Below are positions 1 through 19,983 of a stretch of 64,000 nt of DNA, in pieces; the first letter of the stretch is position 1; each line of letters starts with the position of its first letter. The stretch is from Arthrobacter jinronghuae (GTDB taxonomy: Bacteria; Actinomycetota; Actinomycetes; Actinomycetales; Micrococcaceae), in the NCBI RefSeq assembly GCF_025244825.1, contig NZ_CP104263.1:2852001-2916000 (forward strand). The letters are read 5' to 3'. The notes below the pieces were generated by a model. The model made no database searches and was not told where the DNA came from. It was given only the letters and a program-made list of their open reading frames with translations. Made by a program: the position numbers and the translations under genes.

Positions 1-1737
1 AGCTTCTTCGGGGGCAGCCGCAGGCTTCTTCTTGAGGCTGACGGTTGCCGCCATTGAAGCCGCGGATTCGGATGCCGGGGCGGGAGATGACGGGACCGGT
101 GGTGCCGGTTGTGCCGGTTGTGCCGGCACGGGCACAGGCTTGTTGCCCTGTGCCGCAGCCGGTGCCTGCGGATCGGAAGCCCCTGTTCGTACAGTTCCCG
201 CCTCCGGGCGGGAACGCTCGTCGACGTCCCGGTCCAAAGGCAGCCCGGTGCTCTTGGCGGCCACCTGCAACAGGGCTGCTGCACCGTACATGGGGCGGCG
301 TGCCAGGACCCCTGCCGTCTGGACCGCAACCTGCACCGCGAAAGCGAGCAGCGTCAGCTGGGTGCTGTCCGTAACGGAATAGAACAGGGACGTAAGTCCC
401 ACGGTGCCGGCCGCCCGCAGCCCATAGCTGTTGACGAGCTGGTGGCGGGCGGGGCCCTGCCAGAGCATTACGGCGTAGTAGAGGGCGAATGCGAGGAACA
501 GGATCCCCAGCTGCGCCGAGCTTAGCTGGCCGGAGATCTGGACGGAGGCGATGGCCGTAGCCGGAACCAGGTAGCGGTGGGAGCGGACAAATGCATCTAC
601 GTAGAGATTGTTCAGCCAGCCCGGACGCCGGACCGCAGCGAGGCTGATCAGGGTGGCCAGAATGACCGTGAAGAGGAAGTACCAGACGATTCCCCAGCGC
701 AGTGCCGCACCGGAAGCCAGGCCCGAGGACAGCAGGAACGTCAAGGCAAGATAGGTGACTACCCGGCTTTCAATCTTTGCGGCGGCGTACGCAAACGCCG
801 CGGTTCCAACCACCGAGGTGACCAGCCAGGCCGCAGGTCCGTCCGGAAGCACAAAATTGAACAGGGCTAGTCCGACCACGGGGATCAAGGCCAGGCCGGT
901 ACCCGTAAATGCTACGGCTGCCGGCCGAAGGCGGGCGCTTCGGGCATGTATGACCAGTCCCGAGATATAGAACAGGGCCGTGACAGCGACAACTCCGAAG
1001 AAGCGGGCCTCTGCCGGGATGGCCAGCCCGATGAACAGTGCGGCAGCAGCCACCAGCAGGAGGCTGGCGGAGTAGAGCGTGATGTTGATGTTGCGCAGGT
1101 CCCGGCGTCGTTTTTCTTCCTTCAACTCGGCTTCGGTCTTGACCAGCGGAACCGGTCGAGGCGGAACCGGTCGAGGCGGAACCGGTCGAGGCGGAACCGG
1201 AACGTTCCGGTTCGGGGCACCGGGCGCTGGGACGGCAACCGGCGGGTGGCCGCCCGGCACTCCGACAGGAGGCACAGCGGCTGACGGAGCATGGGACTGA
1301 GACGACGGAACCGTGTATGAGGAGACATACGAAGCAGTGGGGGCCGGTGCGGCAGCGGGGGCAGGTGCGGCAGCAGGGGCAGGTGCGGCAGCAGGGGCAG
1401 GTGCGGCAGCAGGGGCCGGTACAGCAGCAGGGGCCGGTACAGCAGCGGGAGCAGGTGCGGCAGCGGGTGCAGCAAGAGCCGGCGTGACGGCAGGAGGCCC
1501 AGCAGGGGCCGGCGCCGCGGCAGGATCCGAAGCGGCGGGAGCAGGTGCCGCGGCGGGTTGCTGGAAGCGCAGTGCTGCGTCGTTGAATCCCGCCCGGTAA
1601 CCGTCTTCGTAGATTTGGGCCGGCGGCGGCAGCGGCCTGCCCTGGCTGTCCACGGGGCGGGCGGCTTTTTTACCTGCCGACCGCCCTATGGCGAAACTGG
1701 CAGCGGCTGCTGCCAGGAAAAAAAGAAAGACCCCCAT
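1..1737 (-). CDS. Large multi-spanning membrane protein with Pro/Ala repeats (3' end outside window)
   Basis: The reading frame opens at ATG 1737 and stays open to the window edge, giving 579 visible codons with no stop. It starts with a short hydrophobic segment (MGVFLFFLAAAASFAIG) that could be a signal anchor. Residues about 50-200 are Ala/Pro-rich, with an APAAAP-type repeat (about 89-132) and PVPPR repeats (about 180-197). A charged stretch (KEEKRRRD) leads into a polytopic domain of many hydrophobic segments (about 210-480). The visible C-terminal part is again Pro/Ala/Gln-rich. I do not recognise the family; a DUF2339-like envelope protein is only a guess. The gene is divergent from the cluster starting at 2125. 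Confidence 0.75.
   Translation of the reverse strand, partial: MGVFLFFLAAAAASFAIGRSAGKKAARPVDSQGRPLPPPAQIYEDGYRAGFNDAALRFQQPAAAPAPAASDPAAAPAPAGPPAVTPALAAPAAAPAPAAVPAPAAVPAPAAAPAPAAAPAPAAAPAPAAAPAPTASYVSSYTVPSSQSHAPSAAVPPVGVPGGHPPVAVPAPGAPNRNVPVPPRPVPPRPVPPRPVPLVKTEAELKEEKRRRDLRNINITLYSASLLLVAAAALFIGLAIPAEARFFGVVAVTALFYISGLVIHARSARLRPAAVAFTGTGLALIPVVGLALFNFVLPDGPAAWLVTSVVGTAAFAYAAAKIESRVVTYLALTFLLSSGLASGAALRWGIVWYFLFTVILATLISLAAVRRPGWLNNLYVDAFVRSHRYLVPATAIASVQISGQLSSAQLGILFLAFALYYAVMLWQGPARHQLVNSYGLRAAGTVGLTSLFYSVTDSTQLTLLAFAVQVAVQTAGVLARRPMYGAAALLQVAAKSTGLPLDRDVDERSRPEAGTVRTGASDPQAPAAAQGNKPVPVPAQPAQPAPPVPSSPAPASESAASMAATVSLKKKPAAAPEEA
1147..1200. repeat. 15-bp tandem repeat (3 full copies plus a partial one)
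   Basis: The unit cggaaccggtcgagg occurs at 1147-1161, 1162-1176 and 1177-1191, followed by a 9-bp partial copy. The unit is a multiple of three, so read on the minus strand it encodes a repeated PVPPR pentapeptide inside the membrane-protein gene. Copies are exact, so copy number may vary between strains. Confidence 0.9.
1341..1470. repeat. 18-bp imperfect tandem repeat coding for Ala/Pro
   Basis: About seven copies of a unit close to gcaggtgcggcagcaggg run through this stretch. On the minus strand they encode an alternating Ala-Pro tract just after the N-terminal hydrophobic segment of the membrane protein. Such tracts usually act as extended spacers. Confidence 0.85.
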
Positions 1738-2124
1738 GAAACTGCTACCTTCCGGTTCGAGTTCGACTGGAGACCATCCTAGGGTGCTGCAGCTCACATG
1801 CTGGTAACTGTTCGATCCCGGTGGGTACAACATTCCGTGCCGGCCGCACCCAGGCGTCCTGTGCAGGAATAGTGCCTGACTGCCTGCGGGCACAGGGCAG
1901 GCCGCGTGGCGGCGCCCGGTCCGGTCCGGCACCGGCAGGCGGCGCAGCGCCCCCAGCCGACCCGCAGCGGCCCCCAACCGACCCCACAACCTGCCCCCGG
2001 CGGAAATGTGCCCCGCCTGCCGATCTGCCGCAAAGGCTGTTCCAGCCCGGATAACAAACTGGTAGCGTCGGCGCACTAGGGGTCAGGGGGAAGGCGCCAC
2101 ACGAACGGAAAGGGCCTTGCGGCC
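1738..2124. other. Divergent intergenic region, no gene seen
   Basis: This 387-bp gap separates the minus-strand membrane-protein gene from the plus-strand cluster and should hold both promoters. I see no convincing -35/-10 pair. From roughly 1937 to 1998 the plus strand is dominated by cytosine with few guanines, unlike its surroundings. The short open frames here lack ribosome-binding sites and coding character. Confidence 0.5.
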
Positions 2125-5100
2125 ATGTATCTTTCGGTCCTTGGAACGCACTCCGGCATCACCGGTTCGGTGCAGGTTCCCAACTCCAAATACCACGCCC
2201 ACCGGGCGCTGATACTGGCTTCCCTCGCTCCGGGGACCAGCCGCATTTCCGGTCTGACCGATGCCCGCCATGTGCAGTACACGGTGGCCGCGCTACGCCA
2301 GCTCGGTACTGCGATAGACGTGCAGGATGACACCTTTATTGTCCACGGCGGCCCGTACCGCCCACGGCGTGCCGTTGTCTCCGCCGGCAGCTCCGGAACC
2401 ACGCTGTACTTCATGGCCGGACTCGCCTCGCTGGGGACACGCGACGTCGTCGTCACCGGGCAGAAATACTTCCAGCGCCGCCCCATCGGTGCCTTGTTGG
2501 CTGCCCTCCGCGAGATGGGTGTGGACATCGCCTCGAACGGCGGCTGCCCTCCCCTGCAGGTTGCCCACGGACGGCCGCGCGGCGGCGAAGTCCATATCTC
2601 CGGGACCCTCTCACAGTGGATTTCCGGCCTGCTCCTGCTGGCACCGTTTGCCCGTTCCGAAACGACGGTGCTGGTGGACGGCCCGCAGAATGAAACCAGC
2701 TATGTGGAACTGACCCTCGCCATGATGGCCCGCTTCGGATTGCAGGTGGAGGCCTCCGAGGACCTCAGGCGCTTCCGCATCCCGGCGGACCAGCAGGCCG
2801 TCCCCGCGGACCTGCGGCTGCCACCGGATATCGGGTCGGCTGCCTTCGGACTCGCGGCGGCGGCCCTTCATCCGGCAGATATTTCCCTGACCGGGCTGAG
2901 CGCCACCTCCTCGTCCGGATCCGACCATCCCGAGGCTGACTTCCTGGACCTTGCGGCGCAGATGGGGGTGCCCATGGACTACGACCAGGCAGCCGACGCG
3001 GTGAGGGTCCGCCATCAGGGCCTGGACCTGCAACCCGTCGACGTCGACTGCCGGCGCGTGCCGGACATGCTTCCGGTGCTGTCTGTGATGGCATGCCTCG
3101 CCGCGGGCCGGAGCGTTTTCCGCAACATCGACCACGTACGGATGAAGGAGTCCGATCGGGTGGCCGCCATGCTGCAGCTGAACTCAATGGGCGCGGACCT
3201 CACCGTGGAGGGCTCTACCTTGACGATCCGCGGAGTCGGCAGCCTGGGCGGCGCGGATCTCTCCTCCTTTAATGACCACCGGGTCCTGATGTCCCTGGCC
3301 GTGGCGGCTTCCGCCGCAGAAGGACGCAGTACGCTCACTTATCCAAACGCCTACCGCATTTCCTACCCCGAATATCTGGCGGCCATGACCACTTTCGGGC
3401 TGCACATGAAGGTCGAAGACGGCGTGCTCCAGCGTCCCCGCCCCAGCCGGCCGGCCCGAACCGCACGCGGAAGCCGCCCCCGGAGCATTTACGGACCGGC
3501 CGCAGTAGAGGCGGCAGCGGCCGTCACCGGTCCGGACTGGGTACGGCGCTGGGCTGCGGAACGTCCCAATGAAACAGCGGTGGTCGACGGCGGCCCGCGG
3601 ATATCGGGGCACCTCACCTGGTCCGAGCTCGACACGCAGGCCCACCGCGTCGCCGCAGCACTGCTGGAGCTGGGGGTGCGGCCGGGTGACCGGGTGGCTT
3701 TCCAACTCCCCAACCGAAGCGAGTTCGTTGTCCTCACCGTGGCTGTCCTGCGCCTGGGCGCCGTCGCCGCGCCCGTGATGCCGATCTTCCGGGAGCGGGA
3801 GGTCGCGCTGGTACTGGACCGGGCCGGTGCCCGCGTCTTCGTTGCCGTGGAGGAGTTCCGCGGACGCCATCCGGCGGAGGAACTGGCCGGGCTGCTGCAG
3901 CGCGCGGACCGAACCGATGCGGTGCCCGCCCCCAAGGTGGCGGATGTTCTGGTGCTGCGGAATGCCGAGTCGCCGCGCCCCCTCCCCTCTGTAGCCGGCG
4001 GCCCGCGGTTCCACGACTGGGACGCCGTGCTGAACCGCGTGCACCCCGCGGCTGTGCTCCCTCCCGGTGCTGCGCCAACCGTCGGGGACCCTGCACAGTT
4101 GCTTTTCACGTCCGGCACCTCCGGGGAACCCAAGGGGGTGGTGCACCGTCATGGGGCGCTTAGCCGCGCTGCGGCCATGGAGGCGGCGCATCTGGGCCTC
4201 ACCAGCGATGACGCCGTCTTCATCCCCTCACCCCTGGCCCACCAGACCGGTTTCCTGTACGGAATGTGGCTCTCGTTCGTACTCGGCTGCCCGCAGATCC
4301 TGCAGCCGGTGTGGGACGCGGAACGGGCCGTGAAACTCATGCGGGGGTGGCGTGCCACCTTCGTCCAGGCTGCCACCCCGTTCCTCACCGACCTGGTTGC
4401 CGCCGTGGACGCGGGAACCGCAGCTCCGCCCAGCCTGCGCATCTTCGTCGCGACAGGTGCCGCCGTCCCCCGGCACCTCGCCGAGCGTGCCACACGTGTT
4501 CTGGGTGCGGGCATCTGCGGTGCGTTTGGAACCACTGAAACCTGTCTGGCCACCCTGGCGTCACCCGGGGATGAACCGGTAAAGGTGTGGGGCACCGACG
4601 GGCGGGCGTTGGAGGGGGTGCGGACCCGGATTGTCGACGACGACGGCCGCCTCCTGCCGCCCGGCGTCGAGGGCAACTTCGAGCTTCTCAGTCCCACCGT
4701 CTTTGACGGGTACCTTGACCGTCCGGACCTGACCAAGGAAGCCTTGACCGAAGACGGCTGGTACCGCACGGGAGACACCGCCATCCTTGATGATGCCGGG
4801 TACCTGCGCATCACCGGACGGGTTCGCGACATCATCAACCGCGGAGGGGAGAAAATCCCGGTGGCCGAGATCGAGCAGCTCCTCTACCGCCATCCCGCCG
4901 TGCGGGATGTTGCCCTGGCGGCCATGCCCGATGATCGGCTGGGCGAGCGGGCCTGCGCCTTTGTAGTCCCCGTGGAGGGGTCGCGCCTGCAGCTGGCGGA
5001 TCTCACCGGGTTCCTCGACCGGCACAGCGTCTCCAGGCATTACTGGCCTGAACGCCTCGAGCTGGTCGACGCACTCCCCCGCAATGCCGTGGGCAAAGTG

Positions 5101-5190
5101 CAGAAGTTCCTGCTGCGGGACACGGCCCGCAGCTTCGCCGCCGGCGGCGGACCGCCCGAACCCGGAACACCGGATTGGAGCAGCCAGTGA
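2125..5190 (+). CDS. EPSP-synthase-like / acyl-CoA ligase fusion (AnsJ-AnsK or PlmJK type)
   Basis: A 1021-residue two-domain protein. Residues 1-430 are a complete EPSP-synthase (AroA) fold: K22, R27, GTT 91-93, R119, Q164, D314, K341-E342-x-x-R345 and N383-D-H-R386 match E. coli catalytic or ligand positions. By eye, however, S23 is Y23, N94 is S89, R100 is Y95, S169 is L162, S197 is E190, N336 is H337 and K411 is I412 (next to R411). Several of these contact the shikimate-3-phosphate phosphate or PEP, so ordinary AroA activity is doubtful. After an Arg/Pro-rich linker (about 437-462), residues 465-1021 are an ANL-superfamily ligase with the P-loop FTSGTSGEPKG (about 659), FGTTE (about 801), YRTGD, and the A10 lysine in NAVGKVQK (about 990). 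It overlaps the next gene (GTGA). The layout matches the fused PlmJK protein of cyclohexanecarboxyl-CoA biosynthesis, so a ring dehydration plus CoA activation is inferred. Confidence 0.85.
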   Translation: MYLSVLGTHSGITGSVQVPNSKYHAHRALILASLAPGTSRISGLTDARHVQYTVAALRQLGTAIDVQDDTFIVHGGPYRPRRAVVSAGSSGTTLYFMAGLASLGTRDVVVTGQKYFQRRPIGALLAALREMGVDIASNGGCPPLQVAHGRPRGGEVHISGTLSQWISGLLLLAPFARSETTVLVDGPQNETSYVELTLAMMARFGLQVEASEDLRRFRIPADQQAVPADLRLPPDIGSAAFGLAAAALHPADISLTGLSATSSSGSDHPEADFLDLAAQMGVPMDYDQAADAVRVRHQGLDLQPVDVDCRRVPDMLPVLSVMACLAAGRSVFRNIDHVRMKESDRVAAMLQLNSMGADLTVEGSTLTIRGVGSLGGADLSSFNDHRVLMSLAVAASAAEGRSTLTYPNAYRISYPEYLAAMTTFGLHMKVEDGVLQRPRPSRPARTARGSRPRSIYGPAAVEAAAAVTGPDWVRRWAAERPNETAVVDGGPRISGHLTWSELDTQAHRVAAALLELGVRPGDRVAFQLPNRSEFVVLTVAVLRLGAVAAPVMPIFREREVALVLDRAGARVFVAVEEFRGRHPAEELAGLLQRADRTDAVPAPKVADVLVLRNAESPRPLPSVAGGPRFHDWDAVLNRVHPAAVLPPGAAPTVGDPAQLLFTSGTSGEPKGVVHRHGALSRAAAMEAAHLGLTSDDAVFIPSPLAHQTGFLYGMWLSFVLGCPQILQPVWDAERAVKLMRGWRATFVQAATPFLTDLVAAVDAGTAAPPSLRIFVATGAAVPRHLAERATRVLGAGICGAFGTTETCLATLASPGDEPVKVWGTDGRALEGVRTRIVDDDGRLLPPGVEGNFELLSPTVFDGYLDRPDLTKEALTEDGWYRTGDTAILDDAGYLRITGRVRDIINRGGEKIPVAEIEQLLYRHPAVRDVALAAMPDDRLGERACAFVVPVEGSRLQLADLTGFLDRHSVSRHYWPERLELVDALPRNAVGKVQKFLLRDTARSFAAGGGPPEPGTPDWSSQ

Positions 5191-6425
5191 GTACTGCAGC
5201 CATCGCAGCCGACGGACGGGGCAGCAGTATCCCGGACCCGGAATACAGAGACCTGCTCGCGTCCGTTACCGAGTGGGTCGAGGGCCCCGGCGAGGAATGG
5301 GCCGACCGCATCGAAACCGGCGGCACCGTGCCCGACGCCCTGTGGAAGGAGCTCCGCGAGGCCGGCTTCCTTTCGCTGGCGGCACCGGCGGAACTCGGCG
5401 GCCGGGGGCTGAGCTTTGTCCAGTGGATGGGCCTGATGGAAGTCTTCTCCCGTTCACACGCCTCGGTCCGCATGATCGTGCACGTGGTCAACGGCACCTG
5501 GCGTGCCATGAATCCGCATGCCGACGAGGTGCAGCGAAGGAAGTTCGTCCTTCCGTCCGTGGCAGGAGACCTGGTTGTTGCTTTCACCCTGACGGAACCC
5601 GGCAACGGCACGGGAGCGGACATCACCTCGAGTGTCCGGCGGGTCGGTGACACCTATTACCTCACCGGCCGCAAGCACCTGATCACTTTCGGTGTGCGCT
5701 GCGACTACTGGCTGCTTTTTGCCCGGTTGGAAGGCACCTCCGGCAGTGCAGGAACGGTGGCGCTGCTGGTGGACCGGCATGCGCCCGGCGTCGAAGTGGA
5801 AGACACCTCGCAGACCATGGGGGTCCGCGGCACCGACCATGCCTCCCTGGCTTTCCGAGATACTCCCGTCCCCGTTGCCGACCGCCTCGGAGCGGAGGGA
5901 GATGGACTCTCCATTGCCCTCGGCGGCTTCCTCACCCCCAGCCGGATCTCCGTGGCGATGAGCTGCGTCGGGCTGGCCCAACGCGCCCAGCAGCTCGCAG
6001 TCGACCATGCCCTGGAGCGCACCACCTTCGGGAAACCGCTCGCCGCGCGGCAGGCCATCGCCTTTGCCCTGGCGGAAAACGCCGCCGATATCGAGGCGGC
6101 CCGCGCCTTGACCCTCCATGCAGCCTCGGCTTGGCAGGACGGTGTTCCCGATGCCGGTTCCCTGTCCTCCATGGCCAAGCTGACCGCAGTGGACATGCTC
6201 ACCCGGGTAACGGACAAGGCCCTGCAGGTCCACGGCGGCATCGGGTACTGGAAGACCGCACCCATCGAACGGGTGTACCGCGACGCGCGGGCGCAGCGCT
6301 TCGAAGAAGGGACCAATGAAATCCAGAAAACGGTGATTGCCCGCGGTATCCTGCGCCAGGCCCAGGGCCCGCGGGCCGACGCCGCCCCGGCCGATCCGTC
6401 TGCGGCATCCGCCGCCCGCCTCTGA
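5187..6425 (+). CDS. Acyl-CoA dehydrogenase (AnsL/PlmL-like)
   Basis: A 412-residue FAD-dependent acyl-CoA dehydrogenase. The start is GTG 5187, overlapping the fusion gene's TGA, with GGAG at 5177-5180; a TTG at 5175 lies inside that ribosome site and is less likely. Family motifs are visible: FTLTEPGNGTGAD in the middle domain, RTTFGKPLAARQAIAF, and the C-terminal VHGGIGYWKTAPIER followed by FEEGTNEIQ, where E374 is the expected catalytic base (E376 in medium-chain ACAD). In cyclohexanecarboxyl-CoA pathways an ACAD-like protein sits between the ligase and the dienoyl-CoA reductase, acting on ring acyl-CoA intermediates. Substrate is inferred only from context. Confidence 0.9.
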   Translation: MSTAAIAADGRGSSIPDPEYRDLLASVTEWVEGPGEEWADRIETGGTVPDALWKELREAGFLSLAAPAELGGRGLSFVQWMGLMEVFSRSHASVRMIVHVVNGTWRAMNPHADEVQRRKFVLPSVAGDLVVAFTLTEPGNGTGADITSSVRRVGDTYYLTGRKHLITFGVRCDYWLLFARLEGTSGSAGTVALLVDRHAPGVEVEDTSQTMGVRGTDHASLAFRDTPVPVADRLGAEGDGLSIALGGFLTPSRISVAMSCVGLAQRAQQLAVDHALERTTFGKPLAARQAIAFALAENAADIEAARALTLHAASAWQDGVPDAGSLSSMAKLTAVDMLTRVTDKALQVHGGIGYWKTAPIERVYRDARAQRFEEGTNEIQKTVIARGILRQAQGPRADAAPADPSAASAARL

Positions 6426-6432
6426 CACCGAC

Positions 6433-8445
6433 ATGCTTGACCGGGTCTTCTCCCCCGTTTCCCTCGGGCGGCTGAAGCTGGACCACCGGATCATCATGGG
6501 GTCAATGCACCTGAACCGGGAGGATGACCCACGTGCCCTGGCCGCGTTCTACGGCGAACGGGCGGCCGCCGGCGCCGGGCTGATCGTCACGGGGGGCGCG
6601 GCAGTGAACCGCGCCGGCGCCGGCGGGCCCAACTACCTGCTGATCAATGAGCCCGAAGCCGCCGCCCGGGTCTCCCCGATGCTCGATGGGGTGCATGATG
6701 CGGGCGGCAGGCTCGCCCTTCAGTTGTTCCACGCGGGACGCTACGCCCGGGAAAGCACGTACGGGCTGCGTCCTGCCGCGCCGTCGGAGGTGTATTCCGA
6801 CTTTTCACGCGCTCTGCCCCGCGCGCTCACGCCGGGGCAGATCGAGGACACGCTTGCCGACTTCGCTGCGGGTGCCGCTGCCGCCCGCACCCTGGGCTTC
6901 GATGCGGTGGAGATCATGGGGTCCGAAGGTTACCTGATCAACCAGTTCGCCTCGCCCCTGACCAACCTGCGCCAGGACCGTTGGGGCGGGGATCCGCACC
7001 GCAGGCAGGCTTTTCCACTGGCGGTGCTGCAGGCGGTCCGGGACGCAGTTGGGCCCGGCTATCCGGTCATCTACCGGACATCGGGTGCCGACTTCGTCGC
7101 CGGATCGAGCTCCCGGGAAGAATCTGCAGCCCTGGCGGTGGCACTGGCCCGGGAGGGGGCCGATGCGGTCAACATCGGCATCGGGTGGCACGAGTCAGGG
7201 GTGCCGTCCGTGCAGGGCCTGGTTCCGCACGGCCGCTGGATGGAAGTTGCAGGGGGGATCCGCACGGCCCTGACGGCTGCGGGAGTGCCCGTTCCGGTCA
7301 TCGGCAGCAACCGGATCAACTCGCTGGAGCTTGCGGAGCGTGCCCTTGCCGCCGGACACGCGGACCTGGTTTCAATGGCCCGCCCTTTCCTCGCCGACCC
7401 GGCAATCGTGGACAAGACCCGGCGCGGCGAGTCGAACCTCGTCAACACCTGCATCGCCTGCAACGAGGCCTGCATCGACCGTTCCCTGGGAGCCGAACCT
7501 GTCTCCTGCCTGGTCAACCCGCGGGCCGGCCGCGAAACAGAATTTCCGCTTCCGCTACGGCCGCCCCGGCGACGGGGCGGTGCCCCCGTCCGGGTCGCCG
7601 TAGTGGGAGCCGGTCCGGCGGGGATGCAGGCTGCCGCAACGGTGGCGCAGGCGGGACATCCCGTGGACCTCTATGAGCAGGACAGCTCCATCGGCGGGCA
7701 GTTCCGGCTGGCCGGCAAGGTGCCGGGCAAGGCAGACTTCCTGCAGACCATCCGCTATTTCACCCATGAACTGGCGCGGCTCGGCGTCCGCGTCCTGACG
7801 GGCACCGCCCCCGAGGCCGCGCACTTGGCCCGCTATGCACACGTCCTGCTGGCCACGGGTGTCCGGCCTCGAACCGTCCGTCTGCCGGGCACCGGCCTGC
7901 TCCCCGTGCTGGACTACCGGCAGGCCTTCGCGGACCCGGCCCGGCTGGGCCGACAGGTAGTCATCATCGGTGCCGGCGGCATTGCAGTGGACCTTTCCCG
8001 CCTCCTGGCGGATACCGGGGCGGCCGGCGGGACGGCAGGCGGTTCCAGGGACGTAACCATAATGCGCCGGGGGTCCCGGATCGGTCACGGCATCGGCCCG
8101 TCCACGCGGTGGGCTGTGCTTCAGGAAATCCGCGCTGCCGGTGTCCGGACCCTCGCTGGAACCACGCCGCTGGAAGTGACCCCCCTCGGGCTTCGCGTCC
8201 GGAACGCGGACGGCACGACGGCGGTCCTGCCGGCTGACGCCGTCGTCCTGGCTGCCGGGCAGGTCCCGCACAACCCGCTCCAGTTCCAGCTGGGCGCCCT
8301 CGGCATCCCCTGTACGGTGATCGGCGGTGCCCTGGACGCCTCGGGCCTGAACGCTGTCCGTGCCTTCGAACAGGGGCTGGCGGCCGGCACCACCGTGGCG
8401 CGCTTACTCGAGCCGGCACGAACCGGAGGACGGACTCCGGCTTAA
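6433..8445 (+). CDS. 2,4-dienoyl-CoA reductase-like FMN/FAD/4Fe-4S oxidoreductase (AnsM/PlmM-like)
   Basis: A 670-residue protein with the full FadH architecture. Residues 1 to about 335 form the FMN-binding old-yellow-enzyme barrel, with Y167 (GSEGYLINQF) and H253 (GIGWHESG) matching the acid/base pair of E. coli FadH (Y166, H252). C340, C343, C347 and C359 form the 4Fe-4S motif CIACNEAC...C. A Rossmann motif VVGAGPAGMQAA (about 389-400) opens the FAD/NADPH part. The start is ATG 6433, 7 bases after the dehydrogenase stop; the frame is open upstream but that would overlap the dehydrogenase. It probably reduces a conjugated cyclic dienoyl-CoA made by the cluster rather than an open-chain fatty acid; that last point is inference. 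Confidence 0.88.
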   Translation: MLDRVFSPVSLGRLKLDHRIIMGSMHLNREDDPRALAAFYGERAAAGAGLIVTGGAAVNRAGAGGPNYLLINEPEAAARVSPMLDGVHDAGGRLALQLFHAGRYARESTYGLRPAAPSEVYSDFSRALPRALTPGQIEDTLADFAAGAAAARTLGFDAVEIMGSEGYLINQFASPLTNLRQDRWGGDPHRRQAFPLAVLQAVRDAVGPGYPVIYRTSGADFVAGSSSREESAALAVALAREGADAVNIGIGWHESGVPSVQGLVPHGRWMEVAGGIRTALTAAGVPVPVIGSNRINSLELAERALAAGHADLVSMARPFLADPAIVDKTRRGESNLVNTCIACNEACIDRSLGAEPVSCLVNPRAGRETEFPLPLRPPRRRGGAPVRVAVVGAGPAGMQAAATVAQAGHPVDLYEQDSSIGGQFRLAGKVPGKADFLQTIRYFTHELARLGVRVLTGTAPEAAHLARYAHVLLATGVRPRTVRLPGTGLLPVLDYRQAFADPARLGRQVVIIGAGGIAVDLSRLLADTGAAGGTAGGSRDVTIMRRGSRIGHGIGPSTRWAVLQEIRAAGVRTLAGTTPLEVTPLGLRVRNADGTTAVLPADAVVLAAGQVPHNPLQFQLGALGIPCTVIGGALDASGLNAVRAFEQGLAAGTTVARLLEPARTGGRTPA

Positions 8446-8519: not shown

Positions 8520-9710
8520 TTACTTGATGATCTTGGTGACGCGGCCTGATCCAACGGTGCGGCCGCCTTCGCGGATAGCGAAGCCGAGGCCCTCTTCCAT
8601 AGCGATCGGCTGGATGAGCTCAACGGTCATCTCAGTGTTATCGCCGGGCATAACCATTTCAGTGCCCTCGGGGAGGGTGATGACGCCGGTTACGTCCGTG
8701 GTACGGAAGTAGAACTGCGGGCGGTAGTTCGAGTAGAACGGGTTGTGGCGTCCGCCTTCATCCTTGGACAGGATGTAGACGTTGGCTTCGAAGTCGGTGT
8801 GCGGGGTAATGGAACCCGGCTTCACGACAACCTGGCCACGCTCTACGTCTTCGCGCTTGATACCGCGGAGCAGCAGGCCACAGTTCTCGCCGGCCCATGC
8901 TTCGTCAAGCTGCTTGTGGAACATCTCGATACCGGTAACCGTGGTCTTCTGGACCGGACGGATGCCGACGATCTCGACCTCGGAGTTGATGGCGAGGGTA
9001 CCGCGCTCGGCGCGGCCCGTGACGACGGTTCCACGACCGGTGATCGTGAAGACGTCCTCGATCGGCATCAGGAACGGCTTGTCCTTGTCGCGAACGGGGT
9101 CCGGCACGTTGTTGTCAACGGCTTCCATGAGCTCTTCGACGGCTGCAACCCACTTGGGGTCGCCTTCGAGAGCCTTCAGGCCGGAAACGCGGACGACGGG
9201 AGCGTTGTCGCCGTCGAAGTCCTGGGAGCTCAGCAGTTCGCGAACTTCCATTTCCACGAGGTCGAGCAGTTCTTCGTCGTCAACCATGTCGGACTTGTTC
9301 AGTGCGACCAGCAGGTAGGGAACACCAACCTGGCGGGCGAGCAGGACGTGCTCGCGGGTCTGTGCCATCGGACCGTCGGTAGCGGCAACCACGAGGATTG
9401 CGCCGTCCATCTGAGCTGCACCAGTGATCATGTTCTTGATGTAGTCAGCGTGGCCGGGGGCGTCTACGTGTGCGTAGTGGCGCTTCTCGGTCTGGTACTC
9501 GATGTGCGAGATGTTGATGGTGATGCCGCGCTGGCGCTCTTCAGGTGCAGAGTCGATAGCAGCGAAATCGCGCTTTTCATTCAGATCAGGGTACTTGTCA
9601 GCAAGCACCTTCGAAATGGCAGCGGTCAACGTCGTCTTTCCATGGTCAACGTGACCAATGGTGCCGATGTTGACGTGCGGCTTAGTCCGCTCGAACTTTG
9701 CCTTCGCCAC
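8520..9710 (-). CDS. tuf: Elongation factor Tu
   Basis: A 396-residue EF-Tu, full length. It delivers aminoacyl-tRNA to the ribosome as a GTP complex. The G-domain motifs GHVDHGKTT (P-loop), DAPGHADY and NKSD are intact, as is the typical C-terminus [10 protein letters not shown]. It is the last gene of the str operon and is separated from fusA by about 220 bp containing a strong hairpin. The conserved start [16 protein letters not shown] is preceded by AGGAGG. Confidence 0.98.
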
Positions 9711-13341: not shown

Positions 13342-14124
13342 CTAGCTGCGGGCACTCAGGGCCGAGGTAATCGTGGCCGAAGCCTGCTGCAGGTGCGGCA
13401 GCACTCGTGCGGCCGCCTCTTCCAGAGTAAGCCCCATGGTTGCCTGCATCGACGTATTCAGGGCCGCGACCACGTTTCCCCGAGGGTCCAGGACGGGAAC
13501 GGCCACGGAGCGCAGGCCCAGTTCCAGCTCCTGGTCCACGATGGCCCAGCCCTGTTCCCGTGCCCGCGCCACGAGGGTACGCAGCCGGTCCGGGTCCGTG
13601 ACCGTGCGCTCCGTCAAGGGACTCAGGCTGGCTTTGGACAGGTAGTCGTCGAACCGGTCCTCGGGGAGCCCTGCCAGCAGGACCCTGCCCATGGAGGTGG
13701 CGTAGGCCGGGAACCGGGTCCCCACGCTGATACCCACGGTCATCAGCCGCCGGGTATGGATCCGGGCGATGTAGACGATCTCGTCGCCGTCCAGCACCGA
13801 GGCCGACGTCGACTCCGAGATTTCCCTGGACAGGTCCTCCAGCACCGGCTGTGCGAGCTGGGGCAGGGATTGGCCGGAGAGGTAGGAGTACCCCAGCTGC
13901 AGGACCAGGGCGGTCAGTTCGAAAGTCCGCCCGTCCGTGCGTACGTAGCCGAGTTCCACGAGGGTGAGCAGGAAGCGGCGGGCCGTGGCCCGGGTCAGTC
14001 CGGTTCGGCGCGATACCTCGCTCAGGGTCATCTGCACGTGGTCGGCGTCGAAGGCCCGGATCACCGTCAGGCCGCGGGCCAGCGACTGTACGAACTGGTC
14101 GCTGGCCGATGCCGTCTCGCTCAC
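13342..14124 (-). CDS. pcaR: IclR-family regulator of the beta-ketoadipate pathway
   Basis: A 260-residue IclR-type regulator. The N-terminal winged helix (about 12-75, ARGLTVIRAFDADHVQMTL, then SRRTGLTRATARRFLLTL) is followed by the IclR effector domain. The start is GTG, 20 bases after the pcaJ stop on the same strand, so it is probably the last gene of the pca operon. PcaR, PcaU and PobR regulators belong to this subgroup and sense beta-ketoadipate, protocatechuate or 4-hydroxybenzoate. The exact effector cannot be told from sequence; pcaR is chosen from context. Confidence 0.75.
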   Translation of the reverse strand: MSETASASDQFVQSLARGLTVIRAFDADHVQMTLSEVSRRTGLTRATARRFLLTLVELGYVRTDGRTFELTALVLQLGYSYLSGQSLPQLAQPVLEDLSREISESTSASVLDGDEIVYIARIHTRRLMTVGISVGTRFPAYATSMGRVLLAGLPEDRFDDYLSKASLSPLTERTVTDPDRLRTLVARAREQGWAIVDQELELGLRSVAVPVLDPRGNVVAALNTSMQATMGLTLEEAAARVLPHLQQASATITSALSARS

Positions 14125-14144
14125 ATGTCCCCTTTTGTTCTCGG

Positions 14145-14810
14145 TTACTGCTGGCTGTCGGCCGCGGAGCGGATCAGCGGGATGTCCATCTTTGCCGCCA
14201 GTTCCTCGAACGTGGTTCCGAAGGTGTCGCGGACGTGGACGCCGTCCTCCTTCAGCAGGAAGACCGCTTCATTAGTGTAGACGCGGGTAACGCATCCGAC
14301 GCCGGTGAGGGGGTAGGTGCACTCCTTCACCAGTTTGCTGAGGCCTTCCTTGGTGAACAGCGACATCATGACGTAGACGTCCTTGGCACCGGTGGCCAGG
14401 TCCATGGCGCCGCCCACTGCCGGGATGGCATCAGGTGCACCGGTATGCCAGTTGGCCAGGTCCCCGGAGGCGGAGACCTGGAAGGCGCCCAGGACACACA
14501 CGTCCAGGTGTCCGCCGCGCATGATCGCGAAGGAATCGGCATGGTGGAAGTAGGCAGCACCCGGCAGTTCGGTCACCGGAATCTTTCCGGCGTTGATCAG
14601 GTCCGGGTCCACCTCTTCCCCGGTGGCTTCGGGGCCCATACCCAGCATCCCGTTTTCGGTGTGCAGGGTGATGTTCTGCTCGGGCCGAAGGTAGTTGGAG
14701 ACCAGGGTCGGCTGGCCGATGCCCAGGTTCACGAAGGACCCGGGGGCAATATCGGCCGCCACCAGCGCAGCGAGGTCGTTCTTGCCCAGCTTTTCGGTTC
14801 TGTTGCTCAT
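14145..14810 (-). CDS. pcaJ: 3-oxoadipate CoA-transferase subunit B
   Basis: A 221-residue beta subunit of the succinyl-CoA:3-oxoadipate CoA-transferase. The motif LHTENGMLGMGP contains the glutamate that forms the enzyme-CoA thioester in this family. The start ATG 14810 overlaps the pcaI stop (ATGA), implying translational coupling and 1:1 subunits. A related acetoacetate CoA-transferase is the alternative, but the pca neighbourhood decides it. Confidence 0.9.
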   Translation of the reverse strand: MSNRTEKLGKNDLAALVAADIAPGSFVNLGIGQPTLVSNYLRPEQNITLHTENGMLGMGPEATGEEVDPDLINAGKIPVTELPGAAYFHHADSFAIMRGGHLDVCVLGAFQVSASGDLANWHTGAPDAIPAVGGAMDLATGAKDVYVMMSLFTKEGLSKLVKECTYPLTGVGCVTRVYTNEAVFLLKEDGVHVRDTFGTTFEELAAKMDIPLIRSAADSQQ

Positions 14811-15490
14811 GCTGCAGCCGGCGCTTTCTCCCGGTCCACGCGGACCAGGCTGTTGACGTAGATTCCCGGGGTGACCACGACTTCGGGGTCCATTTCTCCG
14901 ACGTCGACGATTTCGCGGACCTGCACAATTGCGGTCTTCGCAGCGGCGGCCATGATCGGACCGAAGTTCCGGGCGGTCTTCCGGTAGACCAGGTTCCCTG
15001 CCTTGTCGGCGCGCAGTGCCTTGACCAGTGCGAAGTCAGCGTGCAGCGGGGTTTCGAAGACATAGCCGCGGCCGTCGATCATCCGGGTTTCCTTGCCTTC
15101 GGCCAGCGGGGTGCCGTAAGCGGTGGGAGTAAAGAACCCGCCGATGCCCGCGCCGGCGGCGCGGATACGCTCGGCGAGGTTGCCCTGGGGCACCAGTTCC
15201 AGTTCTATTTCCCCGGCGCGGTACTTGGCGTCGAAGATCTGCGAGTCGGACTGACGCGGGAAGGAGCAGATGATCTTCTTCACCCGTCCGGCACCGATCA
15301 GGGCGGCCAGGCCCTGTTCTCCGTTGCCGGCGTTGTTGTTGACCACGGTCAGGTCCTTGGCGCCCTGGCGCAGCAGCGCCTCGATGAGCTCCACGGGCTG
15401 TCCGGCCCGGCCGAACCCGCCGATCATGACGGTGGCGCCGTCGTGGATGGGCGCAACGGCCTCATCAACGTCCTGCACAATGTTGAGCAC
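14807..15490 (-). CDS. pcaI: 3-oxoadipate CoA-transferase subunit A
   Basis: A 227-residue alpha subunit of the CoA-transferase that converts 3-oxoadipate to 3-oxoadipyl-CoA. The N-terminal GATVMIGGFGRAGQP and the NNAGNGEQGLAALI segment are typical of class I CoA-transferase A subunits. It lies between pcaF and pcaJ and overlaps pcaJ by four bases. Confidence 0.9.
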   Translation of the reverse strand: MLNIVQDVDEAVAPIHDGATVMIGGFGRAGQPVELIEALLRQGAKDLTVVNNNAGNGEQGLAALIGAGRVKKIICSFPRQSDSQIFDAKYRAGEIELELVPQGNLAERIRAAGAGIGGFFTPTAYGTPLAEGKETRMIDGRGYVFETPLHADFALVKALRADKAGNLVYRKTARNFGPIMAAAAKTAIVQVREIVDVGEMDPEVVVTPGIYVNSLVRVDREKAPAAA

Positions 15491-15522
15491 GGTTTTTCCT
15501 TACGTCTTCGGTTGCTGGATTC

Positions 15523-16722
15523 TCAGTTGGCGTTTTCGAGCACGACGGCGAGGCCCTGGCCCACGCCGATGCAGATGGCGGCCACGCCCCAGCGCTCACC
15601 CGATTCCTGCAGCCGGCGGGCCAGCGTGCCGAGGATGCGGGTGCCGGAGGCTCCGAGCGGGTGGCCGATGGCGACGGCGCCGCCCCAGGCGTTGACGATA
15701 GCCGGGTCGACATCCCAGGCGTCCAGGCAGGCGAGGGACTGGGCTGCAAAGGCCTCGTTGAGCTCAATGGCGCCGACGTCGCTCCAGCTGATGCCGGCCC
15801 GCTTCAGCGCTGTGTTGGCTGCTTCCACCGGGGCGTAACCGAAGTACTGCGGCTCGTTGGCTGCAGCGCCGCGGCCGGCGATCCGGGCCAGCGGGTCCAG
15901 GCCGAGGATGCCGGCGGCGTTCTCGCTGCCCAGCCAGGCCGCGGAGGCGCCGTCGTTCAGGGGGGAAGCGTTGCCGGCGGTGACGGTGCCGCCGGAGACG
16001 TCCTCCGACGCCGGCCGGAACACGGTGCGCAGCGTGGCCAGCTTCTCGACCGTGGAGCCGGCGCGGATGCTTTCATCCCGGTCCAGGTCCACGCCGTCGA
16101 CGGCGACCGTCAGGTTCGCGTATTTGCCCTCGTCCCACGCCTTTGCGGCGAGGGCGTGCGAGGCTGCGGCGAACGCATCTTGGCGTTCCCGCGTGATGCC
16201 GTACTTCTCGCGCAGCTGCTCGGTGGCCTCACCGAGGGAGACGGTCCATTCCTTCGGCATGGCCGGGTTGACCAGCCGCCAGCCCAGCGTGGTGGAGGCC
16301 AGGGTCTGATCTCCGGCGGGGTACGGCTTCTCGTTCTTGGGCAGCACCCAGGGCGCACGGCTCATGGACTCGGCGCCGCCGATGAGCATCAGGTCCGCTT
16401 CGCCGGTGTTGATCTGCCGCGACGCGATCAGTGCTGCGTCGAGGGACGAGCCGCAGAGCCGGTTGACCGTGGTGCCCGGGATCGAGGTGGGCAGGCCGGC
16501 CAGCAGCGTGGCCATCCGCGCGACATTGCGGTTCTCCTCGCCTGCGCCGTTGGCGTTGCCGAAGACCACCTCGTCGATCCGCTCGGGGTCCAGGCCGGGC
16601 GCCCGGGACACGGAAGCCTTCAGGACCTGGGCGGCCAGGTCGTCCGGGCGGACGCCGGCGAGGGCTCCGCCGAATTTGCCGAAGGGGGTGCGGACTGCGT
16701 CGTAGATATAGGCCTGGTTCAC
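15523..16722 (-). CDS. pcaF: 3-oxoadipyl-CoA thiolase
   Basis: A 399-residue thiolase that splits 3-oxoadipyl-CoA into succinyl-CoA and acetyl-CoA, the last step of the pathway. The nucleophile is in NRLCGSSLDAALIA, the histidine in GGAVAIGHPLGASG, and the second cysteine in AICIGVGQGLA. The start is GTG 16722 (MNQAYIYDAVRTPFGKFGG). Its position between pcaC and pcaI supports the specific assignment over a generic acetyl-CoA acetyltransferase. Confidence 0.92.
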   Translation of the reverse strand: MNQAYIYDAVRTPFGKFGGALAGVRPDDLAAQVLKASVSRAPGLDPERIDEVVFGNANGAGEENRNVARMATLLAGLPTSIPGTTVNRLCGSSLDAALIASRQINTGEADLMLIGGAESMSRAPWVLPKNEKPYPAGDQTLASTTLGWRLVNPAMPKEWTVSLGEATEQLREKYGITRERQDAFAAASHALAAKAWDEGKYANLTVAVDGVDLDRDESIRAGSTVEKLATLRTVFRPASEDVSGGTVTAGNASPLNDGASAAWLGSENAAGILGLDPLARIAGRGAAANEPQYFGYAPVEAANTALKRAGISWSDVGAIELNEAFAAQSLACLDAWDVDPAIVNAWGGAVAIGHPLGASGTRILGTLARRLQESGERWGVAAICIGVGQGLAVVLENAN

Positions 16723-16780
16723 CGGTGCTCCTTGAACTGGAAAGCGAAAACTGGAAGTGGCAGTTGGGACGGACTGAGGC

Positions 16781-17185
16781 TCAGGCCGCGGCGTCGATCT
16801 CGCGGAAGACGCCCTGGGCCACCTTGAAGGCGGAGTTGGCGGAGGGGACGCCGCAGTAGATGGCGGACTGCAATACGATCTCCTTGATCTCGTCCCGGTC
16901 CAGCCCGTTGCGCAGCGCTGCCCGGACGTGCATGGCGAACTCCTCCAGGTGGCCGTGGGCGATCAGCGCCGTCAGGGTGATGGCGCTGCGCATGGTGCGC
17001 GGCAGGCCCGGCCGGGTCCAGATGGTGCCCCAGGCGTACTGGGTGATCAGGTCCTGGAAGTCGGTGGTGAACTCGTCCTTGCCTGCGTTGGCGCGGTCCA
17101 CATGCTCGGCTCCGAGGACCTCGCGGCGCACCGCCATGCCCTCGTTGTATACGTCCTGCCGGCTCTTGTTGGCGTCTGCGATCAC
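16781..17185 (-). CDS. pcaC: 4-carboxymuconolactone decarboxylase
   Basis: A 134-residue protein of the CMD/AhpD fold that decarboxylates 4-carboxymuconolactone to 3-oxoadipate enol-lactone. Typical motifs are WTRPGLPRTMRSAITLTALIA, in part, and EIKEIVLQSAIYCGVP. The start is GTG 17185, four bases after the pcaD stop. In many actinobacteria pcaD and pcaC are fused as pcaL; here they are separate. Confidence 0.92.
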   Translation of the reverse strand: MIADANKSRQDVYNEGMAVRREVLGAEHVDRANAGKDEFTTDFQDLITQYAWGTIWTRPGLPRTMRSAITLTALIAHGHLEEFAMHVRAALRNGLDRDEIKEIVLQSAIYCGVPSANSAFKVAQGVFREIDAAA

Positions 17186-17189
17186 TGGG

Positions 17190-18002
17190 TTATTTCCCTT
17201 CGAGGTACTGGGCGCCGAAGAAGTCCTTCAGCAGTTCTGCGGTAACGGCCGGCTGCTCCACCGGCACCAGGTGCGCTGCGTCTTCGACGACGGCGGCGGT
17301 TCCGTTGGCCACCCGGTCGGCAATGAGCTGCGCGAACGACGGCGGGGTGACGACGTCTTCGGCGCCGGCGACAGCGAGCACGGGGACCGTGATGTCCGGC
17401 AGCCGTCCGCGGACATCGAAGGTCGCCAGTGCCCGGCAGCAGAGGGCGTAGGAGAAGCGGTCCGCGTCCTGCAGCGAGTGGAGCAGGGCGGCGGCAGCGG
17501 CGGGCTCACGGTCCATAAAGCCCGGAGCGAACCAGCGCTGCCCGGAGCCGACGACCTGGGTGGGCGTGCCCTGGACGCGCACCGTTTCAGCGCGTTCCTC
17601 CCAGGCTCCGGTTTCGCCGATCTTGGCGCCGGAACAGAGGACGGCCACGCCGTCGAACAGCGCCCCGTGGTCCAGGGCGAGCTGGAGCCCGACGGCGCCG
17701 CCCAGCGATACTCCGGCATAGAAAACCGGGACATCTGCGGGAATGTCTCCGGCATCGCGGGCTCCCGTGACCATCGCGGCGACTGCGGCGGCCAGGTCCG
17801 CGATGCTGAAGGATTCGCCTGCAGCGGGGCTCGCGCCGTGGCCGGGCAGGTCCCAGGCAATGACGGTGAAGGTGTCCAGGGCTGCCGCGGCCCGGCTCCA
17901 CAACGGCATGGACGCTGTGCCCAGCGACGGGCCGGCGATCAGGACCGGGGCCGCGGGGCCGGCGTTGGAAAGGCGGGAGGCCTTAATAGCGGGGATACTC
18001 AT
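17190..18002 (-). CDS. pcaD: 3-oxoadipate enol-lactonase
   Basis: A 270-residue alpha/beta hydrolase that opens 3-oxoadipate enol-lactone. The nucleophile elbow is GVSLGGAVGLQLA (G-x-S-x-G). The acid lies near VLAVAGAEDVVTPP and the histidine in EDAAHLVPVEQP. Its start overlaps the pcaB stop by four bases, and pcaC follows directly. It is a free-standing enzyme rather than the N-half of a PcaL fusion. Confidence 0.9.
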   Translation of the reverse strand: MSIPAIKASRLSNAGPAAPVLIAGPSLGTASMPLWSRAAAALDTFTVIAWDLPGHGASPAAGESFSIADLAAAVAAMVTGARDAGDIPADVPVFYAGVSLGGAVGLQLALDHGALFDGVAVLCSGAKIGETGAWEERAETVRVQGTPTQVVGSGQRWFAPGFMDREPAAAAALLHSLQDADRFSYALCCRALATFDVRGRLPDITVPVLAVAGAEDVVTPPSFAQLIADRVANGTAAVVEDAAHLVPVEQPAVTAELLKDFFGAQYLEGK

Positions 18003-19414: not shown

Positions 19415-19416
19415 GG

Positions 19417-19983
19417 TTACGCCCCGGGGTAGGTGAGGAAGACGGTTTCGTCCTCGCCCTGCAGGCAGATGTTCCAGCGGAGTCCGCCGTCGGCTTCACG
19501 GGTGGCGATCAGGGTGCGCCGGCGGTCCTCCGGCAGCGAGGACAGCAGGGCGTCGCGGGCCAGCGCCTCTTCGTCATCCGGCAGGTACATCCGGGTGTGC
19601 AGCTTGTTGAGCAGGCCGCGGGCAAAGATGACGAATGAAATGAAGGGTGCCGATCCCTCTTCCGTGGGACCGGGGTTGACCGTAGTGAAGGTGTAGTTGC
19701 CGACGTTGTCGACGGCGGTGCGGCCCCAGCCGGTGAAGGTGTAGCCGTCACGGACCAGCGATCCGGTCCGCTGCGGGATATTGCCGTCGGCGTCGGCCTG
19801 CCAGATTTCCAGCAGGGCATCCGGAATGGTTTCTCCGGCGCCGTCGGTCACGGTGCCCTGGAGGCGGACGCTGCCGGGCATGCCCGGGGGCAGCAGCTGG
19901 TTGTCCTTCTCGAAGGGGAGGGCGTAGCCGTAGAAGGGGCCGATGGTTTGGCCGGGCGTGGCGGTTAGCTTCTGCTCGCTCAT
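19417..19983 (-). CDS. pcaG: Protocatechuate 3,4-dioxygenase alpha subunit
   Basis: A 188-residue intradiol dioxygenase alpha subunit. I chose ATG 19983 (MSEQKLTATPGQTIGPFYGY), which overlaps the pcaH stop as TAATG; the frame extends upstream only inside pcaH. The fold is that of PcaG, but the iron ligands of the beta subunit are not conserved, as expected for the structural partner. It assembles with PcaH. Confidence 0.93.
   Translation of the reverse strand: MSEQKLTATPGQTIGPFYGYALPFEKDNQLLPPGMPGSVRLQGTVTDGAGETIPDALLEIWQADADGNIPQRTGSLVRDGYTFTGWGRTAVDNVGNYTFTTVNPGPTEEGSAPFISFVIFARGLLNKLHTRMYLPDDEEALARDALLSSLPEDRRRTLIATREADGGLRWNICLQGEDETVFLTYPGA

What the first reader, a model, noticed from the sequence alone, without database searches (positions are those of the whole stretch)
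2125..8445. Shikimate-to-cyclic-acyl-CoA gene cluster (fused J-K, L, M) in a Micrococcaceae chromosome
Three overlapping or abutting plus-strand genes encode an EPSP-synthase-like/acyl-CoA-ligase fusion, an acyl-CoA dehydrogenase and a FadH-like reductase with intact cofactor motifs. Established knowledge: the ansatrienin (ansJ, K, L, M with chcA) and phoslactomycin (plmJK, L, M) clusters of Streptomyces use this set to turn shikimate into cyclohexanecarboxyl-CoA. Here the set stands alone beside the str operon, with no chcA-like enoyl reductase and no polyketide synthase in view. Inference: the cell makes a cyclohexenyl- or cyclohexyl-type CoA ester, perhaps to prime omega-alicyclic fatty acids, or a new metabolite.
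Basis: partly seen in the sequence, partly recalled or inferred. Interest (0 to 1): 0.82.

Follow-up and report, generated by a model that had tools for sequence, protein, structure and literature searches.

The report
Split cyclohexane-acid pathway in Arthrobacter
A soil-type bacterium carries the enzymes expected to turn shikimate into a cyclohexane-ring building block, but the gene set is split between two distant places, and the second place adds a matching reductase, a ligase and a special chain-building enzyme, which suggests ring-tipped fatty acids that could be checked with one lipid test.

Summary
Window 2125-8445 holds JK (EPSP-synthase-like/AMP-ligase fusion), L (acyl-CoA dehydrogenase) and M (FadH-like reductase), abutting, with intact motifs. 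They match the published phoslactomycin cassette plmJK-L-chcA-M, which makes cyclohexanecarboxyl-CoA (CHC-CoA).

The "missing" chcA is elsewhere in the genome, about 1.0 Mb away (shorter way, if circular), heading chcA - AMP-ligase (LIG) - FabF-like ketosynthase (KAS). This split occurs in 12 of 12 genomes of one JK clade (the window's, nine Arthrobacter, two Cellulomonas). Sinomonas keeps chcA inside the cluster at the same rpsJ/tuf site. Six Streptomyces loci have all six genes in a row.

In 197 Micrococcaceae genomes LIG accompanied JK in 18 of 18 cases (2 of 179 others had it). LIG is also in all five Curtobacterium, Gryllotalpicola and Humibacter genomes tested, and was not found in 11 others, including two with PKS and one with NRPS beside JK. 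The window genome has two full ketosynthase domains, presumed FabF and KAS, and no modular PKS.

Most likely, CHC-CoA feeds type II fatty-acid synthesis to give omega-cyclohexyl acyl chains. CHC-CoA is well supported by orthology; the lipid is inferred. New variant of a known pathway.

The parts
2125..5190 (+). JK: AroA-like (J) domain fused to an AMP-forming acyl-CoA ligase (K) domain
   Evidence: TIGR01356 aroA 314.9 bits; TIGR03208 cyclohexanecarboxylate-CoA ligase 449.2 bits, under its cut-off of 792.3; homologues; tree
5187..6425 (+). L: acyl-CoA dehydrogenase; preferred start overlaps the JK stop (TTG 5175 also possible)
   Evidence: motif FEEGTNEI, the form found in 61 of 76 L rows; PDB relatives
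6433..8445 (+). M: FadH-like FMN / Fe-S / FAD reductase
   Evidence: (Cys cluster and the GSEGYLI / GWHE stretches aligned to 1ps9)
8520..9710 (-). tuf (by eye): right-hand edge of the conserved site; rpsJ and the S10 operon lie on the left, outside the window
   Evidence: the same site in Sinomonas L016

Best explanation
JK-L-M is half of a two-locus pathway. K makes a CoA ester of shikimate or of an early product, J removes water, and L, M and ChcA (encoded at 218,703-219,542 of the same chromosome) carry out the reductions and double-bond adjustments that lead to cyclohexanecarboxyl-CoA. That ester then enters type II fatty-acid synthesis, with the dedicated KAS (and possibly a KAS III) as condensing enzyme and LIG as an acyl-CoA ligase, to give omega-cyclohexyl acyl chains. 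Shown here: gene content, motifs, orthology, the split, its conservation, and the co-occurrence of the parts. Established for the known cassette, partly from memory: the reactions to CHC-CoA. Inferred: the use in lipids and the roles of KAS and LIG.
For: Cassette: 62 of 81 JK loci have JK-L-chcA in order and 12 have JK-L-M; published genes plmJK, plmL, ChcA, plmM listed in that order for phoslactomycin and lactomycin (PMC5852498 table). chcA elsewhere: 433 bits against 102 for the next SDR of the genome; one chcA match at E<=1e-50 in each of 26 JK genomes. Split: 12 of 12 genomes of the clade have chcA-LIG-KAS contiguous; the clade is one group, SH-aLRT 100, quick tree. Six Streptomyces loci hold JK-L-chcA-M-KAS-LIG in a row. 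KAS: 20 second-locus rows and 12 JK-locus rows (one gene counted twice) form a clade, 100/99, with none of the 10 sampled other ketosynthases inside; catalytic Cys, His, Lys, His stretches intact in 32 of 32 rows. Co-occurrence in 197 Micrococcaceae: JK 18; chcA in 18 of 18, LIG in 18 of 18, KAS in 16 of 18. LIG in five of five Curtobacterium, Gryllotalpicola and Humibacter genomes tested. Only two full ketosynthase domains; three KAS III family matches. dN/dS 0.065-0.214 over all six genes.
Against: No lipid or metabolite data. One search for omega-cyclohexyl with fatty acid and Arthrobacter gave one unrelated paper; lipid descriptions of the species were not read (listing only). KAS is absent from the two Curtobacterium, one Gryllotalpicola, one Humibacter and two Sinomonas genomes tested, so it is not needed for the known lipid, or the KAS lineages make something else. 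Two of 179 genomes without JK have LIG-KAS: G030 (with chcA) and G043 (without). LIG was not found in S. albus, Acidothermus, Streptosporangium or two Eremiobacterota either, so its absence does not mark PKS use alone. Eremiobacterota have a separate KAS next to JK. Specibacter-type genomes have no M at the locus and only a 45-47 % homologue elsewhere.
Confidence: 0.6

Rival explanations
1. CHC-CoA is made, but KAS and LIG send it to a product other than ordinary omega-cyclohexyl fatty acids, such as a short cyclohexyl beta-keto acid or a specialised lipid.
For: KAS forms its own clade with residues fixed against seven compared FabF-type enzymes (for example A106, V107 and L201 in 32 of 32 rows; G, I and F in 7 of 7). 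The Curtobacterium, Gryllotalpicola and Humibacter genomes tested lack it.
Against: I saw no further conserved partner gene beside LIG-KAS across the lineages in the gene-order tables. LIG is shared with Curtobacterium, Gryllotalpicola and Humibacter.
Confidence: 0.22
2. The JK-L-M operon works without ChcA and yields cyclohexenyl-CoA, a dihydrobenzoyl-type CoA or benzoyl-CoA.
For: chcA lies apart from JK-L-M in this clade and could be regulated apart.
Against: chcA is present in 12 of 12 genomes of the clade and in all 18 JK genomes among 197 of the family, with dN/dS 0.069-0.116.
Confidence: 0.08
3. The genes take part in breakdown of alicyclic or aromatic acids, not synthesis, in line with the pca-type genes further along the window.
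For: A PcaR/PcaU/PobR-type regulator and pca-type genes lie at 13,342-20,807; K and L resemble families that, from memory, also serve cyclohexanecarboxylate degradation.
Against: L scores 137.9 bits against a cut-off of 575.35 for TIGR03207 cyclohexanecarboxyl-CoA dehydrogenase and K 449.2 against 792.3 for TIGR03208. The Cellulomonas loci show none of the pca cluster labels in the stretch read. Homologous cassettes sit beside modular PKS genes in Streptomyces L078 and Actinoplanes L060.
Confidence: 0.05

Closest known systems
CHC-CoA cassette of phoslactomycin/lactomycin (plmJK, plmL, chcA, plmM; pnP1-4; lmP1-4) and, from memory, ansatrienin ansJ-M + chcA
   Same: Fused JK, L and M, with a matching chcA in the genome; order JK-L-chcA-M in 29 of 81 loci, and with further genes added in others; gene names in PMC5852498 (passage)
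   Different: chcA lies ~1 Mb away in a chcA-LIG-KAS operon; no modular PKS in the genome
Omega-cyclohexyl fatty-acid makers (Curtobacterium pusillum, Propionibacterium cyclohexanicum, Alicyclobacillus: passages in PMC5023266)
   Same: Curtobacterium loci L079, L080, L081 carry JK-L-chcA-M and their genomes the LIG subfamily
   Different: The Arthrobacter clade also has the dedicated KAS, not found in the two Curtobacterium genomes tested; no lipid data for Arthrobacter; Propionibacterium and Alicyclobacillus genomes were not examined
FabF (beta-ketoacyl-ACP synthase II)
   Same: KAS passes NCBI's fabF cut-off (496.6 against 493.75 bits); catalytic stretches intact
   Different: 38-42 % identical to the further ketosynthases listed for the KAS-bearing genomes; separate clade with altered residues
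AroA (EPSP synthase)
   Same: J passes the aroA cut-off (314.9 against 287.25 bits), and databases name many JK proteins 3-phosphoshikimate 1-carboxyvinyltransferase
   Different: The genome has another AroA (359.8 bits); J has SKY for SKS, LSQ for SSQ, and no Lys in the stretch that matches TAKT, where the alignment is gapped

Membership tests
plm/ans-type CHC-CoA biosynthetic cassette | AroA-like/AMP-ligase JK, acyl-CoA dehydrogenase L, FadH-like M | tested here: met
plm/ans-type CHC-CoA biosynthetic cassette | ChcA (1-cyclohexenylcarbonyl-CoA reductase, SDR) in the genome | tested here: met
   72 % to the Sinomonas protein that sits between L and M; closest PDB chain FabL with the Y-x6-K spacing
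plm/ans-type CHC-CoA biosynthetic cassette | chcA between L and M | tested here: not met
   Absent in the window and in the 11 other loci of its clade; 62 of 81 loci have JK-L-chcA
plm/ans-type CHC-CoA biosynthetic cassette | ChcB-type enoyl-CoA isomerase | not tested
   No search made; family too common to be diagnostic
plm/ans-type CHC-CoA biosynthetic cassette | Conversion of shikimate to CHC-CoA | not testable with these tools
   Needs biochemistry
Omega-cyclohexyl fatty-acid pathway | CHC-CoA cassette plus a type II FAS entry enzyme (KAS III) | tested here: met
   a full ketosynthase domain (presumed FabF) lies about 1 kb from a KAS III match at 2.33 Mb
Omega-cyclohexyl fatty-acid pathway | Omega-cyclohexyl acids in the lipids | not testable with these tools
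   No lipid profile at hand; library searches
PKS starter-unit cassette | Modular PKS in the genome | tested here: not met
   Two full ketosynthase domains only. NRPS was not searched

The most novel reading that the evidence does not exclude
LIG and KAS define an uncharacterised branch of alicyclic lipid chemistry: a FabF-derived ketosynthase adapted to a ring-bearing starter, present in Arthrobacter, Cellulomonas, Specibacter-type bacteria, Microbacterium and Streptomyces, giving a cyclohexyl lipid different from the omega-cyclohexyl fatty acids of Curtobacterium, with a ketosynthase recruited a second time in Eremiobacterota.
Probability: 0.25. Interest if true: 0.75.

Novelty: new variant of a known kind. 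Interest (0 to 1): 0.55.

Why it matters
It predicts a ring-tipped lipid or related product in a common genus for which my one direct search found no report, and names two further genes (LIG, KAS) that none of the listings I saw ties to cyclohexanecarboxyl-CoA (subscription papers mostly not held). It also points to a misleading annotation (JK named as EPSP synthase), and shows that asking only for genes near a cluster can miss half of a pathway. The prediction can be tested with one fatty-acid profile of a culture-collection strain such as A. koreensis DSM 16760, whose genome carries both loci (L015, L139).

Tried and rejected
Rejected: an M gene in the Specibacter-type second loci. A 659-714 aa gene beside LIG-KAS in three of them looked like M by size; BLAST found no M there, and the one tested (L148) is PaaZ, while the 632 aa gene in L143 is a propionate-CoA-ligase-like protein. 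Those five genomes have only a 45-47 % M homologue elsewhere. Rejected: KAS as the general key to omega-cyclohexyl fatty acids. Rejected: the GH1 beta-glucosidase gene (481 aa) next to M in Sinomonas as a pathway gene; M runs straight to tuf in the Arthrobacter loci. Rejected: PF00275 hits L001 and L004 as extra J copies; they are MurA.

Rows dropped before a count: G031, G159 and G174, which match only the ligase part of JK at 38-40 % (G124, matched in two pieces, was kept). From the FabF set: L121, L122 and L126 (7 of 10 used). Limits: one search kept the best 80 of 345 candidate stretches. The labels c3, c4 and c5 are loose homology clusters: for example a c5 ligase lies upstream of JK in L069 and L074, and L048 and L065 have extra c4 genes; these were not tested as LIG or KAS, except that the c4 rows are in the KAS tree. 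In the family searches only some top candidates per genome were scored (4 for JK, up to 9 for KAS, 7 for LIG, 12 for chcA), at E<=1e-100, 1e-115, 1e-150 and 1e-70. In one search at most 54 candidates were scored in the large genomes, at E<=1e-90.

Papers: listings only; passages only of PMC8742107, PMC10562698, PMC5118839, PMC7760578, PMC5023266, PMC9730843, PMC5852498. No paper was read whole. Not done: ChcB search, structure models, a second protein-database search, NRPS search in the window genome.

Recalled, not from a call: roles of AnsJ-M and ChcB, E. coli FabF residues I108/F202, EPSP-synthase phosphate-site residues, lipids of Gryllotalpicola and Humibacter, the degradative role of TIGR03207/TIGR03208.
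Full report
What is in the window. JK (2125-5190), L (5187-6425) and M (6433-8445) run on the plus strand with a stop/start overlap and a seven-base gap (a gene caller of my own, trained on the JK frames). Pfam and NCBIfam place J in the EPSP-synthase family, K with AMP-forming acyl-CoA ligases (best family TIGR03208 cyclohexanecarboxylate-CoA ligase, 449.2 bits, under its cut-off), L with acyl-CoA dehydrogenases and M with FadH/BaiCD-type proteins. Against E. coli 2,4-dienoyl-CoA reductase (1ps9) M keeps the Cys cluster and the EGYLIN and GWHE segments; L keeps the EGT glutamate motif. J passes NCBI's AroA cut-off, in line with its database name. The genome has another AroA (359.8 bits) and two MurA. 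Aligned with that AroA, J keeps SK and the Arg of the first motif, the (S/R)RP, E(S/T)DR and DHR motifs, but has SKY for SKS and LSQ for SSQ, and no Lys in the stretch matching TAKT, where the alignment is gapped. From memory, some of these positions hold the phosphate of shikimate-3-phosphate in EPSP synthase; this would fit an unphosphorylated substrate, but is inference.

The missing reductase. Among 80 genome loci with JK (the best 80 of 345 candidates) plus the window, 62 have JK-L-chcA in order and 12 have JK-L-M. The SDR after L is taken as ChcA by position: PMC5852498 lists plmJK, plmL, ChcA (cyclohexenylcarbonyl-CoA reductase) and plmM in that order (passage). The closest solved relative of the window genome's copy is the enoyl reductase FabL (3oic), with the same Y-x6-K spacing; 69 of 75 ChcA rows match a pattern for it. 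A search of the window's genome with the Sinomonas ChcA gave 47 SDR matches, of which one stands out: 218,718-219,518, 72 % identity, 433 bits; the next has 102 bits. So the set is complete but split over two places about 1.0 Mb apart by the shorter way, if the chromosome is circular.

The second locus. chcA (218,703-219,542) is followed by LIG, an AMP-forming ligase of 559 aa (219,562-221,241), and KAS, a FabF-like ketosynthase of 410 aa (221,242-222,474). LIG is closest in the PDB to 4-chlorobenzoate-CoA ligase. KAS passes the fabF cut-off by a little; the stretches ACASG, AHGT and KSM(T/V)GH are intact in 32 of 32 rows of its clade, and 31 positions (one a gap in FabF) differ consistently from the seven FabF-type rows compared, including V107 for I and L201 for F. 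These two correspond, from memory, to I108 and F202 near the acyl pocket of E. coli FabF.

The split is shared by a clade. Twenty-six genomes were searched with KAS and ChcA. ChcA: one match per genome in 26 of 26. KAS: 20 of 26 have a copy at 61-99 %; the other six (two Sinomonas, two Curtobacterium, Gryllotalpicola, Humibacter) have only 37-44 % matches. Reading 19 of these 20 second loci plus the window genome's, all 12 genomes whose JK locus lacks chcA have chcA-LIG-KAS contiguous. In the JK tree these 12 (window, nine Arthrobacter, two Cellulomonas) form one group with SH-aLRT 100, next to Sinomonas (quick method). Sinomonas L016 keeps JK-L-chcA-M at the same place, between rpsJ and tuf. 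The simplest reading is that chcA moved to LIG-KAS in the Arthrobacter lineage. In Cellulomonas the two halves also lie apart, on stretches without the Arthrobacter neighbours, and in both trees they fall with the Arthrobacter-type group (JK 100; KAS 99/96 for the 12), as if two unlinked halves had been passed on together; their exact place inside the group is less sure.

KAS and LIG belong with the pathway. Six Streptomyces loci have JK-L-chcA-M-KAS-LIG in a row and six loci JK-L-chcA-M-KAS (one of these, L064, has the Eremiobacterota type of KAS). Specibacter-type genomes have JK-L-chcA in one place and LIG-KAS in another; Homoserinimonas and Microlunatus have JK-L-chcA-M, with LIG-KAS or KAS-LIG apart. 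In the KAS tree 32 rows (one gene counted twice) group at 100/99 with none of 10 other sampled ketosynthases inside; the JK-adjacent KAS of Eremiobacterota form another clade, and a few long-branched paralogues fall elsewhere. In 197 Micrococcaceae genomes (same handles in four searches): full-length JK 18, chcA 19, LIG 20, KAS 18. All 18 JK genomes have chcA and LIG; 16 have KAS (not G144, nor the Sinomonas G176). Of 179 without JK, G030 has chcA-LIG-KAS in a row and G043 has LIG-KAS; both speak against strict dependence. Of the 12 genomes of the window's genus, itself included, 9 have all four and 3 have none. Kinship makes any p-value misleading, so none is given.

What the product may be. 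LIG was found in 15 of 26 chosen JK genomes: two Sinomonas, two Cellulomonas, Microbacterium, Luteimicrobium, Homoserinimonas, Microlunatus, two Streptomyces of the six-gene type, three Curtobacterium, Gryllotalpicola and Humibacter. Curtobacterium pusillum is a reported maker of omega-cyclohexyl fatty acids (PMC5023266 passage); for Gryllotalpicola and Humibacter I rely on memory. It was not found in 11: L078 and L060, with modular PKS beside JK, and L059, with an NRPS nearby; L033, L043 and L057, which share aminotransferase and class II DAHP-synthase clusters and are only presumed to be ansamycin-type (no PKS was seen there); and S. albus, Acidothermus, Streptosporangium and two Eremiobacterota. 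So absence of LIG is not peculiar to PKS or NRPS settings, and remote copies are not excluded. In the window genome the only full ketosynthase domains are one at 2.33 Mb, presumed FabF, near a KAS III match, and KAS. With no modular PKS, the likely consumer of CHC-CoA is type II fatty-acid synthesis, hence omega-cyclohexyl acyl chains. That KAS is missing from the Curtobacterium, Gryllotalpicola and Humibacter genomes is the main point against a simple equation, and leaves room for another product.

Selection. dN/dS of the window genome against L005, L007 and L008: JK 0.107-0.129, L 0.125-0.180, M 0.152-0.214, chcA 0.069-0.116, LIG 0.090-0.113, KAS 0.065-0.092. All parts look kept as working genes.

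Print. Library searches for the cassette and for cyclohexyl lipids listed no paper whose title or abstract start links such a KAS or LIG to CHC-CoA; most subscription papers are not held, and the ansatrienin papers were not seen.

Verdict. Observation confirmed; interpretation partly supported; a relocated, six-gene variant of a known pathway with a testable lipid prediction.

Noticed in passing
window 13342-20807 (-): Beta-ketoadipate-type genes beyond rpsL: PcaR/PcaU/PobR-type regulator, CoA-transferase subunit B and protocatechuate dioxygenase beta over their cut-offs; thiolase, pcaDC-like and pcaB/nitrosuccinate-lyase-like genes under theirs. Regulator and CoA-transferase labels recur in the Arthrobacter loci.
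   Followed up: partly
window 1-2076 (-): Long minus-strand frame with a Pro/Ala-rich low-complexity stretch before what look like membrane segments; a related large gene lies beside JK in eight of the loci (c22), but not in Arthrobacter sp. Edens01 (L012).
   Followed up: no
window genome 213,299-218,607 (L097:9300-14608): A divergent gene pair that looks like an ABC transporter (by eye, not scanned) and a two-component kinase and regulator directly upstream of chcA; kinase and regulator sit just upstream of chcA in 7 of 12 genomes of the clade.
   Followed up: partly
L041, L047, L050, L051, L053, L062, L067: Eremiobacterota MAGs carry KAS-JK-L-chcA-M with a gene of the c21 cluster close by, a DAHP synthase in the one tested, L041; their KAS is from a separate clade.
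   Followed up: partly
L042, L049: Two actinomycete MAGs have JK-L only, without chcA or M beside them.
   Followed up: no
L052, L061, L063: Streptomyces loci with JK alone; in L052 and L063 a large unannotated gene of cluster c20 follows, which also follows the cassette in L033, L034, L036, L043, L057 and L078.
   Followed up: no
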